From contig NZ_JANZXN010000003.1 of assembly GCF_025629245.1 (NCBI RefSeq), positions 62,001 to 126,000 on the forward strand: a DNA stretch of 64,000 bases, in the 5' to 3' direction. Positions within the stretch are counted from its first letter, which is position 1; each line of letters begins with the position of its first letter. This DNA is from Natronobiforma cellulositropha. Lineage in GTDB: Archaea; Halobacteriota; Halobacteria; Halobacteriales; Natrialbaceae. Under the pieces are notes generated by a model. The model was not told the DNA's origin and did not search any database. It was given only the letters and a program-made list of their open reading frames with translations. The position numbers were made by a program, and so were the translations under genes. Shown piece by piece: positions 1-21,619 of this stretch.

Positions 1-902
1 TCGAGGCGCTCGAGCAGTGCCCCCAGGGTACTGTCGTCGGCTGTCGTCCCGTCGAACTCCCCGTCTTCGAAGGCGTCGAGCGTGGACTGTTGCGGGCCGT
101 CATCACCGATCGACAGACGCTGCACGTGAACGTCCATCCCCAAGCGGTGGGCGACGATCGGGTCCCCCTCGAGTGCCTTCCTCGCTACCTCGTCAGCTTC
201 ACGCTCGAGTTCGGGGTCGGGATCGATGACCAGCGAACTCCCCTCCTGGGGGAGCATGCTGATCTGGCCCCCGGTCTGCTGTCTCACGTGCGCGAGTTCG
301 TGCGCGAGCAGGTACTTCCCCTCCGCGCTCCCGGGGTCGTACTCCCCGCGGTTGAACACCACGTGGTTACCGGTGGTGAACGCACGCGCCTCGAGCGCGC
401 TCGCCGCCTTCGCGGCCTCCGGCCCCGTGTGAAGCTGTACGTCCGAAAACGAGTCGCCCATCCGCTGTTCCATTTCGTCACGAACAGCTCCCTCGAGCGG
501 CCGTCCCGGCTGTGAGATCACGCGCCGGACCACGTCGGGTGTCGCGGTCTCACCTGCCAGATCGCTCTCGCCCTGCGCCTCCACAGACCGCATCGCGCTC
601 TCGGTGTCGAGGTCGACACCCGCGCTCGCGCTGCGCGCTCGAGCGACGCGAACTTCCTCACCAGTCGGCGTGTTACAGCCGGGTTTGAGTTCGCCGCGCT
701 CGGCCCAGTCGGCGACCTGCGGGTAGCCGTAGCGGCCGACGAGGTCGTCGAGTTCGGCGGCGTGCTCGAGTGACGGCGGCGTCACCCCCGGTAGGTTCTG
801 GTGTGGGCGCGCCCCCTGTGGCTGTACTCGAGCGCGCCGTGTTCGTTCGTTCCGCTCGCTGTCGTCGTTCGGCCGGTCGCGTCGGTCCCGGTCGAAACTC
901 AC
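1..902 (-). CDS. DUF4157 (eCIS core) domain protein, C-terminus cut by window edge
   Basis: The frame is open from a GTG at 902 to the left edge, so the protein (at least 300 aa) is incomplete. The GTG follows GAGGTG at SD distance. After an Arg/Asp-rich N-terminus comes a region around HAAELDDLVGRYGYPQVADW, then the DUF4157 core: MGDSFSDVQLHTGPEAAKAA, AFTTGNHVVFNRGEYDP, and LLAHELAHVRQQ with an HExxH motif. DUF4157 occurs in putative metallopeptidases and in cargo or core proteins of extracellular contractile injection systems. Whether this protein is catalytic or a cargo cannot be told here. Injection-system genes, if present, would lie left of the window. Confidence 0.85.
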   Translation of the reverse strand, partial: MSFDRDRRDRPNDDSERNERTRRARVQPQGARPHQNLPGVTPPSLEHAAELDDLVGRYGYPQVADWAERGELKPGCNTPTGEEVRVARARSASAGVDLDTESAMRSVEAQGESDLAGETATPDVVRRVISQPGRPLEGAVRDEMEQRMGDSFSDVQLHTGPEAAKAASALEARAFTTGNHVVFNRGEYDPGSAEGKYLLAHELAHVRQQTGGQISMLPQEGSSLVIDPDPELEREADEVARKALEGDPIVAHRLGMDVHVQRLSIGDDGPQQSTLDAFEDGEFDGTTADDSTLGALLERL

Positions 903-1313
903 ACGTCCCACCTCAGTCGTGCATACATCGGTAATTAACGCTGTGTTACGAGTCGATTGTATTAGGTGTTGGTGTTCAGACACCACCGCTGGATACCCCC
1001 GTTCCGACCTGGATTCTTCGGAAAGGAGAGTATCACCGACACCCATTTCCAGAAATTATATGTGTCTATCCGTGAAACTCACGTCCGGAAGCGACGCCCG
1101 CCGAGCGGATGGGGCACGCGAGAAAGTGCCCCGGGTGCACCACCACCCGAGGCGTGGCTTCCAACTCGGAGTGAGTCCTGAAGCCATGGATACCTACCGA
1201 CCACGCGACCTTAAAAGGCTCGCAAACGCACTGTACAGCCCGCGAAACGCCCGTTCTCTGAGTGTCTACGCCGTCACTCGAGCGCGTCCCACGGCCACTC
1301 GAGGGGGACGGCG
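903..1313. other. Gene-free stretch with structured element
   Basis: About 410 bases without a convincing gene. The open frames on the plus strand are basic and unlike haloarchaeal proteins. The stretch holds a GGTGT/ACACC hairpin near 970-984, AT-rich patches near 1050-1063, the compact multi-hairpin block listed separately at 1071-1185, and a TATA-like CTTAAAAGG at 1210-1218 that may serve the zinc-finger gene downstream. Confidence 0.6.
1071..1185 (+). ncRNA. Candidate structured RNA, possibly a TnpB-element guide-RNA (omega-RNA) relic
   Basis: Several perfect inverted repeats are packed into about 115 nt: CGTGA (1071-1075) with TCACG (1079-1083), GGGGCAC (1111-1117) with GTGCCCC (1126-1132) around an 8-nt loop, and GGCTTC (1156-1161) with GAAGCC (1180-1185). 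ACTCAC (1077-1082) can also pair at long range with GTGAGT (1171-1176), and CCGAG (1147-1151) with CTCGG (1165-1169), giving pseudoknot-like alternatives. The stem-packed block resembles the right-end RNA region of haloarchaeal IS200/IS605 TnpB elements, but no tnpB gene is present. Strand and identity are inferred. Confidence 0.4.
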
Positions 1314-18170: not shown

Positions 18171-18342
18171 GCGAGTCGAGTCCTGATTCGTACACGCGGT
18201 ACTGACTTCCGACTGTTCTTCGTTTATCACCCACAGAGCGCCCGCTCAGGAGTCCGACGACGGGTGCGAGAGAGGTCCCCGCCAGCCGCCAGCGTCCTCC
18301 GTGACAGCAACGGATTAGTTCCCGAGCAGCCAAGCTGAATTG

Positions 18343-18474
18343 ATGGACGAGAACGCTGAGGCGGCCACACGACAGGGGGCGACCCGCCAGCAAACATCCG
18401 GACACGGAATCCGGGAAGATGGAGACCACGGCCGCGCGACCGCCACGGCGTCAGCCGAGTGCGAGGGGCGGTGA
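18343..18474 (+). CDS. Possible 43-codon leader ORF of unknown gene, copy 1
   Basis: ATG 18343 opens a frame (MDENAEAATRQGATRQ) that ends with TGA one base before a GTG (18476) in frame with the main gene. GAGGGGCGG precedes that GTG at SD distance. The frame is the same length in the second copy, without indels. It could be a translated leader, or the annotated upstream start of the main gene may be wrong. Coding status is uncertain. Confidence 0.3.
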   Translation: MDENAEAATRQGATRQQTSGHGIREDGDHGRATATASAECEGR

Positions 18475-19315
18475 CGTGTTTTCCCTGCTAGCCGCCCTCG
18501 AGCGGGTGACATCGCTGTCCAGACGCAGCGCCAGAGAGCACCGAGACGAGACCGTCGTCGCCGTCGGGATGGGTGGCGAGGAGTTCTGCGAACGGAACGG
18601 ACTCGACCCGAAACGGGACGTCGACCGCCAGCCCGCCGGGGTGAACTTCTACTCGTACGACTGGGCGACCGCCGACCGCGGAACGGTCACCATCGAACAC
18701 GGGACCCACGGATTCAGCGTCCCCGACGCACTCGGCGTGATGGGGGCCGAGGACGCAGACCGCGTGGAGACGGGATTTCTGCGTGTGTGGGTGAGCTTCG
18801 GATTCCTCGGTGGTGGGGAGGTATCTCACGCGGGCGTTAGAGACGCAACCTACGAGTTTCTCGCCGACCTCCAGGAGCGCGGCTGGTCACGGTGGCACTC
18901 GCACGGTTCACCCCGGCTGCGCGGGCGTGAGGCGTTCGAGTACATGACGGACGACCTCGTGTACTCGGCACCGCTCGACTACGAACCGACGCTCGAGGAG
19001 TGGCTGGGAGAGTACACGATTCGCTGGAGCCTCCACGCAGACGGCGTCTTCCTCACCCTGCAGTTCCGGAGAAACAGCCAGAAAATGGAGCCGGACGAGC
19101 CGGGAGAGTATTACTTCAAAATGAATCTCGAGTCACGCGACCAGCGAGGGCGCTCGTACTTCGAAGGCGAGGACCGAGACCGGTGGGAAGCGCTCTGGCC
19201 AGCGCTCTCGGCGGAGCGTCGCACACGCCGAGCCGAGAGAGAGGCAGCGTTGCGGGAGGCGGGAGCCACCATCGACGAGTCGTACACCGATCCCGAACTG
19301 CTCCCCGACGACTAG
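18419..19315 (+). CDS. Unknown protein, tandem copy 1 (298 aa)
   Basis: No recognised family. Notable segments are VFSLLAALERVTSLSR, VGMGGEEFCERNGLD, HAGVRDATYEFLADLQERGW, SRWHSHGSPRLRGREAFEYM, YEPTLEEWLGEYTIRWSLH and FLTLQFRRNSQKMEPDEPGE, with an Arg/Glu-rich C-terminal helix. No signal or membrane segments, so probably cytosolic. By eye about 34 of 298 residues differ from copy 2, mostly in the middle third (roughly residues 35-135). The start is uncertain: GTG 18476, after an SD and a leader ORF, is a good alternative and would remove the Arg/Pro-rich N-terminus. Confidence 0.75.
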   Translation: METTAARPPRRQPSARGGDVFSLLAALERVTSLSRRSAREHRDETVVAVGMGGEEFCERNGLDPKRDVDRQPAGVNFYSYDWATADRGTVTIEHGTHGFSVPDALGVMGAEDADRVETGFLRVWVSFGFLGGGEVSHAGVRDATYEFLADLQERGWSRWHSHGSPRLRGREAFEYMTDDLVYSAPLDYEPTLEEWLGEYTIRWSLHADGVFLTLQFRRNSQKMEPDEPGEYYFKMNLESRDQRGRSYFEGEDRDRWEALWPALSAERRTRRAEREAALREAGATIDESYTDPELLPDD

Positions 19316-19318
19316 GTC

Positions 19319-19366
19319 GGAACCGCCCTCGAGCGTCTCAAAGTCCAGCGACGTCTTCGATGGCAA
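19319..19366 (-). pseudogene. Duplicated 3' end of the aminotransferase gene
   Basis: GTCGGAACCGCCCTCGAGCG onward, through GCGACGTCTTCGATGGC, matches 20375-20424 with a few substitutions. There the same bases include the last codons of the aminotransferase (encoding DAIEDIAGL). Here they are an orphan fragment between the two copies of the unknown gene, left by the tandem duplication. Confidence 0.8.
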
Positions 19367-19398
19367 CAGAGTAGTGCTCGAGCATCCACATTCACCTG

Positions 19399-19530
19399 AT
19401 GGACGAGAACGCTGAGACGGCCACACGACGAGGAGCCACCCGTCTGCGGACATCCAGACACGGTGTCCGAGAGGACGGAGACCACGGCCGCGCGACCGCC
19501 ACGGCGTCAGCCGAGCGCGAGGAGCGCTGA
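19399..19530 (+). CDS. Possible 43-codon leader ORF of unknown gene, copy 2
   Basis: ATG 19399 (MDENAETATRRGATRL), ending TGA at 19528-19530. It is identical in length to the copy-1 leader and again one base before an in-frame GTG (19532) preceded by GAGGAGCG. About half of the differences between the two leader frames fall at third codon positions. Weak evidence for translation. Confidence 0.3.
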   Translation: MDENAETATRRGATRLRTSRHGVREDGDHGRATATASAEREER

Positions 19531-20371
19531 CGTGTTTTCCCTGCTAGCCGCCCTCGAGCGGGTGACATCGCTGTCCAGACACAGCGCCAGCGAGCGGCGA
19601 GACGAGATCACCGTCGCCGTCGGGATGGGCGGTGAAGAGTTCTGCGAGCGAAACGGTCTCGATCAGAAGCGGAACGTCAACCGCCAGCCCGCCGGGTTGA
19701 ACTTCTACAGGTACGGCTGGCCGACCGACGACCGGGGAACGGTGACCGTCGAGCACGGTCCCCACGGGTTCGACGTCCCCGACGCACTCAGCGTGATGGG
19801 AACTGAGGACGCAGACCGCGTTGAGACGGGGTTTCTGGACGTGTCGGTGGGCTTCTCGCTGCTCGGCGGTGGAAGCGTCTCTCACGCTGGCGTCAGAGAC
19901 GCGACCTACGAGTTTCTCGCCGACCTCCAGGACCGCGGCTGGTCGCAGTGGCACTCGCACGGTTCACCCCGGCTGCGCGGGCGTGAGGCGTTCGAGTACA
20001 TGACGAACGATCTCGTGTACTCGGCACCGCTCGACTACGAACCGACGCTCGAGGAGTGGCTGGGAGAGTACACGATTCGCTGGAGCCTCCACGCAAACGG
20101 CGTCTTCCTCACCCTGCAGTTCCGGAGAAACAGCCAGAAAATGGAGCCGGACGAGCCGGGTGAGTACTACTTCAGAATGAATCTCGAGTCACGCGACCAG
20201 CGAGGGCGCTCGTACTTCGAAGGCGAGGACCGAGACCGGTGGGAAGCGCTCTGGCCAGCGCTCTCGGCGGAGCGCCGCACACGCCGAGCCGAGAGCGAGG
20301 CAGCGTTACGGGAGGCAGGAGCCACCATCGACGAGTCGTATACCGATCCCGAACTGCTCCCCAACGACTAG
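19463..20371 (+). CDS. Unknown protein, tandem copy 2 (302 aa)
   Basis: Close paralog of the preceding gene. The C-terminal 130 residues are nearly identical, and the middle third has diverged (for example FLDVSVGFSLLGGGS in place of FLRVWVSFGFLGGGE). It starts at a GTG (MSERTETTAAR); GTG 19532 with an SD is an alternative, as in copy 1. Both copies are intact. Copy 2 ends 22 bp before the aminotransferase stop, with which it is convergent. No function assignable. Confidence 0.75.
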   Translation: MSERTETTAARPPRRQPSARSADVFSLLAALERVTSLSRHSASERRDEITVAVGMGGEEFCERNGLDQKRNVNRQPAGLNFYRYGWPTDDRGTVTVEHGPHGFDVPDALSVMGTEDADRVETGFLDVSVGFSLLGGGSVSHAGVRDATYEFLADLQDRGWSQWHSHGSPRLRGREAFEYMTNDLVYSAPLDYEPTLEEWLGEYTIRWSLHANGVFLTLQFRRNSQKMEPDEPGEYYFRMNLESRDQRGRSYFEGEDRDRWEALWPALSAERRTRRAESEAALREAGATIDESYTDPELLPND

Positions 20372-20393
20372 GTCGGAACCGCCCTTGAGCGTC

Positions 20394-21506
20394 TCAGAGT
20401 CCGGCGATGTCTTCGATGGCGTCTGTCAGCGCCCGAATGCTCTCGACGTCGTGTTCGCCCATGTGTCCGATGCGGAAGGTCCGTTCGCCGAGTGCCGAGC
20501 CGTAGCCGTTCGAGAACACCATCTCGTACTCGTCTGCGACGGTCGCGATGGTCCCGGCGACGTCGATGTCCTGGGTGTTCGCGATACAGCTGACCGTCTG
20601 GGACTCGTAGCCCTCCTCGGGGAACATCTCGAAGTGCTCGCGCGCCCACTCCTGGGTGTAGGCGGCCATCTCGCGGTGGCGGGCGTCGCGGGCGTCGTGG
20701 CCCTCCTCGAGCATGTGTTTCATCTGCTGGCGGTAGGCGAGCATGACGGGGATGGCGGGCGTCGAGTGGGTCTGGCCTTTCTTCTCGTAGTAGTCGATAC
20801 AGCGCCGGAAGCCGCCGTACCACGCCGAGGTGCCCTTCTCGGCTTCGCGCTCGTAGGCGTCCTCGCTGACGACGCAGACGCCGAGTCCCGGCGGCATGGC
20901 GAATGCCTTCTGGACGGAGGTGAAGATGACGTCGATGTTGTGTGCGTCGATGTCGACGTAATCGCCACCCAACGCGGAGACGGCGTCGACGACGAAGCAG
21001 GTGTCGGGATACTCGGCGACGACGTCGCCGATCTCCTCGATTGGGTTTCGCACACCGGTCGACGACTCGTTCATCACGCAGGTGACGACGTCGTACCGGC
21101 CGTCGCTCTCCTCGAGTGCTTCGCGAACGTCCTCGGGTTTGACCGCATCTCCCCACTCGTACTCGAGTCGGTCGACGGTCTTGCCGAGGCGCTCGGCGAT
21201 GTCGGCCTGGCGCTCGCTGAAGCTGCCGCAGGTCGTCACGAGGACGTGCTCGTCGACGAGGTTGAGGATCGAACTCTCCATGAAGGCGGTGCCCGACCCC
21301 GTGAGGATGATCACGTCGTTGTCGGTCTCGAGGAACGTCTTCGTGTCCTCGACGATGGTCGTGTAGAGGTCGGTCATCCGCTCGCTGCGGTGGCCGAACA
21401 GCGGTTCGGCCATCGCGTCGACGACGTCCTCGCGGACCTCCGTCGGGCCGGGAATGTACAGCGTCTGCTCGGGGTAATCGTCTCGGTATTCGTGGTTCTC
21501 GCTCAC
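20394..21506 (-). CDS. PLP-dependent alanine-glyoxylate/serine-pyruvate aminotransferase family protein
   Basis: 370 residues from GTG 21506, preceded by AGGTGG at SD distance. Class-V aminotransferase fold: YIPGPTEVREDVVDAM at the N-terminus, LTGSGTAFMESS, DAVSALGGDYVD with the PLP-contacting Asp, FTSVQKAFAMPPGLG with the Schiff-base Lys, and FRIGHMGEHDVES at the C-terminus. Likely moves an amino group between alanine or serine and glyoxylate or pyruvate. The exact substrates are uncertain. Its 3' end is partly duplicated at 19319-19366. Confidence 0.92.
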   Translation of the reverse strand: MSENHEYRDDYPEQTLYIPGPTEVREDVVDAMAEPLFGHRSERMTDLYTTIVEDTKTFLETDNDVIILTGSGTAFMESSILNLVDEHVLVTTCGSFSERQADIAERLGKTVDRLEYEWGDAVKPEDVREALEESDGRYDVVTCVMNESSTGVRNPIEEIGDVVAEYPDTCFVVDAVSALGGDYVDIDAHNIDVIFTSVQKAFAMPPGLGVCVVSEDAYEREAEKGTSAWYGGFRRCIDYYEKKGQTHSTPAIPVMLAYRQQMKHMLEEGHDARDARHREMAAYTQEWAREHFEMFPEEGYESQTVSCIANTQDIDVAGTIATVADEYEMVFSNGYGSALGERTFRIGHMGEHDVESIRALTDAIEDIAGL

Positions 21507-21619
21507 GTGGTCCACCTGAGTACCGGCCACTGCGACCCGAGGCGGTAAGGGAGTTGTGATTGGCTCGAGGACGCGAGCGAGCACTACGATTGATGTGGAG
21601 TGGGCGCGATGGGGGGGCG

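What the first reader, a model, noticed from the sequence alone, without database searches (positions are those of the whole stretch)
18314..20424. Recent tandem duplication of an unknown gene that dragged along the 3' end of its neighbour
A 48-bp orphan copy of the aminotransferase gene end (19319-19366) lies between the two copies, fixing the borders of the original unit. Divergence is concentrated in one part of the protein while the C-terminal 130 residues remain nearly identical, which could mean gene conversion or selection for variation.
Basis: seen in the sequence. Interest (0 to 1): 0.6.

Follow-up and report, generated by a model that had tools for sequence, protein, structure and literature searches.

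The report
Haloarchaeal twin of bacterial T6SS immunity genes
A salt-loving archaeon carries two side-by-side copies of a gene whose only relatives found sit mostly next to toxin-injection weapons in bacteria, which suggests it may have acquired a bacterial antidote gene.

Summary
In detail: two genes (18419-19315 and 19463-20371) lie in a 1,056-bp tandem repeat, with a short copy of the aminotransferase 3' end between them. Divergence is a mosaic. Synonymous divergence is 0.03 in codons 1-35, 0.43 in 36-140 and 0.08 in 141-298. That fits gene conversion over an older duplication, not selection for variation: the divergent part is itself constrained.

The gene is not simply unknown. A profile built only from proteobacterial proteins matches both copies at about 200 bits. 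Those relatives lie beside a DUF2515 gene in 13 of 19 loci and near VgrG in 11 of 19, the layout of T6SS effector-immunity genes. Among 391 genomes of the window's class only the host matches. The host has no DUF2515 match, but a contractile-injection cluster and 34 eCIS_core (DUF4157) matches, the most among 125 family genomes.

Best reading: an orphan immunity-type gene, probably of bacterial origin, duplicated and partly homogenised. No clear export signal is left, unlike in the bacterial proteins, though this test is inconclusive. Immunity function is inferred, not shown.

The parts
18419..19315 (+). copy A, 298 codons from ATG; about 279 if the shared GTG at 18476 is the start
   Evidence: ORF list; proteobacteria-only profile 200.9 bits
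19463..20371 (+). copy B, 302 codons from GTG; about 279 from GTG 19532
   Evidence: ORF list; proteobacteria-only profile 206.8 bits
18288..18310 (.). degenerate third copy of the aminotransferase tail, before copy A
   Evidence: 15 of 23 identical to 19344-19366; best of 4,200 upstream offsets 14
19316..19366 (.). orphan copy of the 22-bp gap plus about 29 bp of the aminotransferase 3' end
   Evidence: alignment at offset 1,056
20372..20422 (.). the original: 22-bp gap and the last 29 bp of the aminotransferase gene
20394..21584 (-). class-V aminotransferase (alanine-glyoxylate type), the neighbour whose 3' end was duplicated
   Evidence: Pfam PF00266 E 1.1e-22; 77% identical to named haloarchaeal proteins
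18343..18474 (+). possible 43-codon upstream ORF of copy A, ending 1 nt before GTG 18476; copy B has it at 19399-19530
   Evidence: in this frame 10 synonymous changes in 34.5 sites against 8 nonsynonymous in 94.5; the gene's own frame gives 4 in 34.9 against 14 in 97.1
18524..18838 (+). divergent, unconverted segment of copy A (codons 36-140); in copy B 19580-19894
   Evidence: dS 0.43, dN 0.146
18839..19315 (+). homogenised segment of copy A (codons 141-298); in copy B 19895-20371
   Evidence: dS 0.08, dN 0.02; the maximum chi-square split lies at 18848

Best explanation
The two genes belong to a protein family that in Pseudomonadota is the small partner of DUF2515 effectors in VgrG (T6SS) loci. 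A haloarchaeal ancestor acquired one such gene, most likely from a bacterium, without its effector and probably without a working export signal, next to an aminotransferase 3' end. Recombination between short copies of that 3' end, or simple tandem duplication, then gave two copies, and gene conversion homogenised the start and the C-terminal half. The most likely job is orphan immunity: a protein, probably cytoplasmic, that binds and neutralises a DUF2515-like effector injected by rival bacteria or by haloarchaea with T6SS-like systems. Shown: family membership, duplication, mosaic divergence, purifying selection, absence of a detectable effector. Inferred: direction of transfer, conversion as the cause, site of action, immunity function.
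For: A profile from 16 bacterial proteins scores both copies at 200.9 and 206.8 bits, against at most 3.2 bits for 1,000 shuffled copies. Identity is 27-33% to the beta-proteobacterial type, with shared motifs such as IDExYxDP in all 18 rows. DUF2515 lies beside the relative in 13 of 19 loci, plus a 35-codon remnant in L041; VgrG in 11 of 19 (Pfam). Of 391 class genomes only the host has the gene. The host has no DUF2515 match at E 1, but a contractile-injection cluster, a neighbouring six-helix membrane protein and 34 eCIS_core matches, the highest count of 125 genomes. Haloarchaeal T6SS toxin-immunity pairs are experimentally described (PMC11566945: abstract, sections 10, 12, 13 read). Both copies are constrained.
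Against: No effector adjoins the pair. The bacterial proteins begin with stretches that look, by eye, like Tat, lipoprotein or membrane-anchor signals; the archaeal ones have no clear one, so an inhibitor of a periplasmic effector would now be in another compartment. That test is not clean: the 15-residue hydropathy maximum of A and B, 1.26, lies at the low end of the 15 bacterial values (1.22-3.15), and a degenerate twin-arginine stretch cannot be excluded. Four of 19 bacterial relatives show no DUF2515 nearby, so the link is not absolute. No activity of DUF2515 or its partner was found in print. The structure model has no significant match.
Confidence: 0.5

Rival explanations
1. The gene came from the immunity family but was co-opted for another role in the archaeon, for example as a binding or chaperone-like protein, and no longer gives immunity.
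For: No effector and no clear export signal; pI 4.9 and few lysines suggest long residence in the host; the model only weakly resembles DcrB and Eag chaperone folds, Z 5.0 to 5.7, too low to conclude.
Against: The host carries the largest eCIS_core set of the family, so an antagonism role is plausible; the C-terminal motif IDExYxDP is fully kept.
Confidence: 0.3
2. The mosaic is not conversion between the copies: the divergent middle of one copy was replaced by DNA from a diverged strain.
For: Any recombination import gives the same dS pattern; only one genome of the genus is held.
Against: Two separate low-divergence tracts flank the segment, which conversion between neighbours explains simply; no other carrier genome was found that could be a donor.
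Confidence: 0.3
3. The pair is the immunity gene of one of the host's own eCIS_core toxins.
For: 34 such matches in the genome, one at window 267-500; in described pairs the immunity gene lies downstream of its toxin (PMC11566945 section 10).
Against: The pair is not next to an eCIS_core gene and is unrelated to the 34-member partner family of those genes (hhalign probability 0.1%).
Confidence: 0.1
4. Both copies are decaying leftovers with no present function.
For: The first start codons differ between the copies.
Against: Both frames are open, and nonsynonymous change is below synonymous in the middle (p 1.4e-4) and in the C-terminal part (p 0.005).
Confidence: 0.07

Closest known systems
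Proteobacterial VgrG - DUF2515 - partner loci (Glaciimonas soli, Thiomonas-like MAGs, Acinetobacter pittii)
   Same: Homologous over nearly the whole mature domain; same conserved motifs
   Different: Most bacterial genes adjoin an effector and begin with a signal-like stretch; the archaeal pair has no effector and no clear signal
Orphan immunity genes / acquired interbacterial defence of Bacteroidales (PMC12247911, passages seen)
   Same: Immunity homologue without a cognate effector; several divergent copies in one system are reported there
   Different: Archaeal host; two copies only; no recombinase link tested; no protection shown
Haloarchaeal T6SS toxin-immunity pairs of Halogeometricum borinquense (PMC11566945: abstract, sections 10, 12, 13 read)
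   Same: Haloarchaeon with a contractile injection cluster and DUF4157 cargo genes
   Different: Those immunity genes lie downstream of their toxins; this pair is an orphan, unrelated to the host's own eCIS_core partner family

Membership tests
DUF2515-linked T6SS immunity-type family of Pseudomonadota | sequence homology over the mature domain | tested here: met
   200.9 and 206.8 bits with a bacteria-only profile; 1,000 shuffles at most 3.2 bits
DUF2515-linked T6SS immunity-type family of Pseudomonadota | adjacent DUF2515 effector gene (13 of 19 relatives) | tested here: not met
   no PF10720 match in the host at E 1; no remnant upstream of copy A
DUF2515-linked T6SS immunity-type family of Pseudomonadota | export signal or membrane anchor at the N-terminus | tested here: inconclusive
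   no 19-residue hydrophobic segment in A or B; 15-residue maximum 1.26 against 1.22-3.15 in 15 bacterial proteins; no signal-peptide program was available
DUF2515-linked T6SS immunity-type family of Pseudomonadota | neutralises the effector | not testable with these tools
   needs an experiment; no paper with DUF2515 in the library
orphan immunity gene | immunity homologue without a cognate effector in the genome | tested here: met
   assembly 96.5% complete, so an effector in the missing part is not excluded
orphan immunity gene | protects against an effector delivered by another cell | not testable with these tools
   needs an experiment
orphan immunity gene | carried on a mobile or recombinase-bearing element | not tested
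   no element search was made around the locus beyond the tail repeats
gene conversion between tandem paralogues | abrupt blocks of low and high synonymous divergence | tested here: met
   dS 0.03, 0.43, 0.08; Fisher p 4.7e-4 and 1.5e-5
partner family of the host's eCIS_core genes | homology to the 34-member family | tested here: not met
   hhalign probability 0.1%, E 0.57; no BLASTP match below E 7

The most novel reading that the evidence does not exclude
A haloarchaeon took over a proteobacterial T6SS immunity gene, lost its export signal, and keeps two copies, partly homogenised by conversion and partly diverged, as an acquired defence across the domain border against DUF2515 effectors.
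Probability: 0.33. Interest if true: 0.8.

Novelty: new variant of a known kind. Interest (0 to 1): 0.55.

Why it matters
Orphan immunity genes are known as a bacterial defence against T6SS; an archaeal one of apparent bacterial origin would show that the arms race crosses domains, and would suggest that bacteria and haloarchaea inject each other. It also points at an uncharacterised effector-partner pair: the window proteins match no Pfam or NCBIfam model, the bacterial partners reach no cut-off, and the term DUF2515 occurred in no paper of the searched library. The pair gives a directly testable prediction of protection.

Tried and rejected
Selection for variation in the divergent part: rejected, since dS is raised there and nonsynonymous change is below synonymous.

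A lineage-specific orphan without relatives: the first searches suggested it. The protein found nothing else in 391 class genomes; a two-row profile gave 24 of 125 family genomes at E up to 1, of which 23 were weak, best 0.017; scans of genome and viral contigs with that alignment confirmed no relative. tblastn on plasmid and phage records changed this: 7 and 2 records. I opened 4 of these 9. A second genome scan then gave 15 loci. That scan used a single motif, so members without it would be missed.

Structure: the model of copy A has mean pLDDT 78 and pTM 0.76, residues 1-41 below 50. Foldseek gave nothing at E 0.001. In the second look six chains reached Z 5 (DcrB, PA1624, SciW, EagT6 and two of unknown function) and the T6SS immunity proteins Tli4/TplEi only 3.5; too weak to use. 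The model of a DUF2515 effector was poor, pLDDT 44, and was not used. PDB sequence search: one hit at E 0.97. PADLOC: nothing for the window proteins.

Integrative-element reading of the orphan tail: the same aminotransferase 3' end is copied downstream in 7 of 111 relatives, but no integrase was looked for, so it stays a side observation. Rfam found nothing in one insert, and the insert motif is absent from the window.

Synteny: of 16 relatives read over 16-17 kb, none has the gene beside the aminotransferase, so the empty site could not be reconstructed. My cold-shock protein query (window 17977 on) was one base out of frame; its results are not used.

Tree: the two copies group with 100/100 support and join the beta-proteobacterial side, but on long branches that the program flags as unreliable.

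Full report
What was checked. It is a haloarchaeon: the aminotransferase is 77% identical to proteins of Halomicrococcus and Halarchaeum and the sheath protein 64% to Haloferax larsenii. Two copies of one gene lie in tandem at an offset of exactly 1,056 bp. The proteins are 89% identical.

Borders. The homology runs from about 18290 to 19366 and from about 19346 to 20422, so the two units overlap by a short tail: part of the 22-bp gap after the gene plus 29 bp of the aminotransferase gene. A degenerate third tail before copy A (15 of 23; best of 4,200 upstream offsets 14) suggests that the single-copy ancestor was already flanked by two tails. Recombination between them would give the tandem arrangement. 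This is inference.

Divergence. Synonymous divergence is 0.03 in codons 1-35, 0.43 in 36-140 and 0.08 in 141-298; the contrasts are significant (Fisher p 4.7e-4 and 1.5e-5). None of 2,000 permutations reached the observed maximum chi-square or the longest identical run, 99 bp. The middle segment shows dN 0.146 against dS 0.43, so constraint, not selection for change. An old duplication with later conversion of two stretches fits best. Import of a diverged segment gives the same pattern and cannot be excluded without sister strains; the genus has one held genome.

Gene model. Copy B has ACG where copy A has its ATG. Over 18343-18474 the changes between the copies fit a separate 43-codon frame (10 synonymous in 34.5 sites, 8 nonsynonymous in 94.5) better than the gene's own frame (4 in 34.9, 14 in 97.1). 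That frame ends one base before a GTG shared by both copies (18476, 19532). The first 41 residues of the model are also of low confidence. A start at the GTG, coupled to the upstream frame, is plausible but untested.

Family. Pfam and NCBIfam give nothing for either protein. tblastn found weak relatives in Duffyella and Acinetobacter records, and a motif scan of the species genome collection then found 15 loci, all from Pseudomonadota or MAGs labelled Proteobacteria. A profile of 16 bacterial proteins, with the window left out, scores copies A and B at 200.9 and 206.8 bits; 1,000 shuffles reach 3.2 at most. Membership is therefore firm.

Neighbours of the relatives. I examined 19 loci: the 15 and 4 of the 9 records. 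A DUF2515 gene lies beside the relative in 13 of 19 (in L030 a fragment upstream and a full gene downstream; in some it is cut by a contig end), and a 35-codon DUF2515 remnant in one more (L041); L038 is cut at the contig edge; L024, L025, L027 and L042 have none. VgrG lies in 11 of 19. In L027 the relative follows a VRR-NUC protein and a TsiV immunity protein. Several DUF2515 stops overlap the start of the partner gene. VgrG, effector, then a small protein with an export signal is the usual T6SS effector-immunity layout (established knowledge; in line with PMC6833914, passages seen). No experimental study of the pair was found: DUF2515 is in no paper of the library.

In the archaeon. With the 18-row profile, 1 of 391 class genomes has the gene, the host itself. 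DUF2515 is absent from the host at E 1, and 0 of 391 class genomes pass the family cut-off. A and B have no 19-residue hydrophobic segment and no clear signal by eye. Their 15-residue maximum of 1.26 is at the low end of the 15 bacterial values, 1.22 to 3.15, where Tat-type starts lie, so a degenerate Tat signal is not excluded if translation starts at ATG 18419. Their pI of 4.9 lies between three haloarchaeal neighbours (4.2-4.4) and three bacterial relatives (5.3-7.6), and third-position GC is 0.80-0.81 against 0.87-0.88 in two neighbours. That suggests a foreign origin with long residence. Direction of transfer is inferred from distribution only.

Host context. The genome has a contractile-injection cluster on contig C60: sheath, tube proteins, AAA ATPase, a LysM tube protein, spike and baseplate. 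[quoted passage not shown] homology was not tested. The genome has 34 eCIS_core (DUF4157) matches. Among 125 family genomes 35 have any, and the host leads with 33 at E 1e-10, the next having 22. Haloarchaeal T6SS killing with toxin-immunity pairs is described in PMC11566945 (abstract, sections 10 and 13 read). The host's own eCIS_core genes have a partner family of 34 members in the stretches fetched (30 of the 34 matches covered), unrelated to copies A and B.

How it most likely works. A and B are orphan immunity-type proteins that bind a DUF2515-like effector arriving from a neighbour. Keeping two copies that share a homogenised C-terminal half and differ in the N-terminal half might widen the range of effectors recognised; this is my inference, prompted by the multiple divergent orphan copies reported in Bacteroidales (PMC12247911, passages seen). 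The missing signal is the main difficulty: the protein must now meet its target in the cytoplasm, or it has been co-opted.

Novelty. I found no report of an archaeal homologue of a bacterial T6SS immunity gene in the paper searches made (listings read, four papers opened in part); subscription papers are mostly not held. Orphan immunity is known; an archaeal tandem version is a new variant if function is confirmed.

Noticed in passing
window 3-1046 (-) and G000 contigs; L188-L207: The host has 34 eCIS_core (DUF4157) matches, the most of 125 family genomes, often in tandem arrays with a partner family of about 310 residues; 34 partner members were seen in 20 fetched stretches covering 30 of the 34 matches.
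   Followed up: partly
G000 contig C60:72654-99108 (L177-L179): A contractile-injection cluster with an adjacent 330-residue protein of six hydrophobic segments, resembling in description the putative anchor of haloarchaeal T6SS.
   Followed up: partly
L051/L068, L057/L069, L091, L123, L153, L164, L172, downstream of the aminotransferase: The aminotransferase 3' end is copied downstream in 7 of 111 other genomes, 6 at about 190-240 bp and one at 2,373 bp; four of the six short inserts hold the motif GTGCTTTTGGTCC and L091 a close variant. The gene end may be a recurrent insertion or recombination site.
   Followed up: partly
window 18343-18474 and 19399-19530: A 43-codon upstream ORF in both copies whose substitution pattern looks coding and which ends one base before a shared GTG.
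   Followed up: partly
L026 (CAKLQH020000013.1): A record named Acinetobacter phage carries the same aldo/keto reductase and regulator genes around the relative as an A. baumannii record (L025), so it may be a mislabelled bacterial contig.
   Followed up: no
L028, L029, L033: Glaciimonas soli GS1 holds three VgrG - DUF2515 - partner loci (VgrG incomplete in two of them), a possible source for testing the pair.
   Followed up: no
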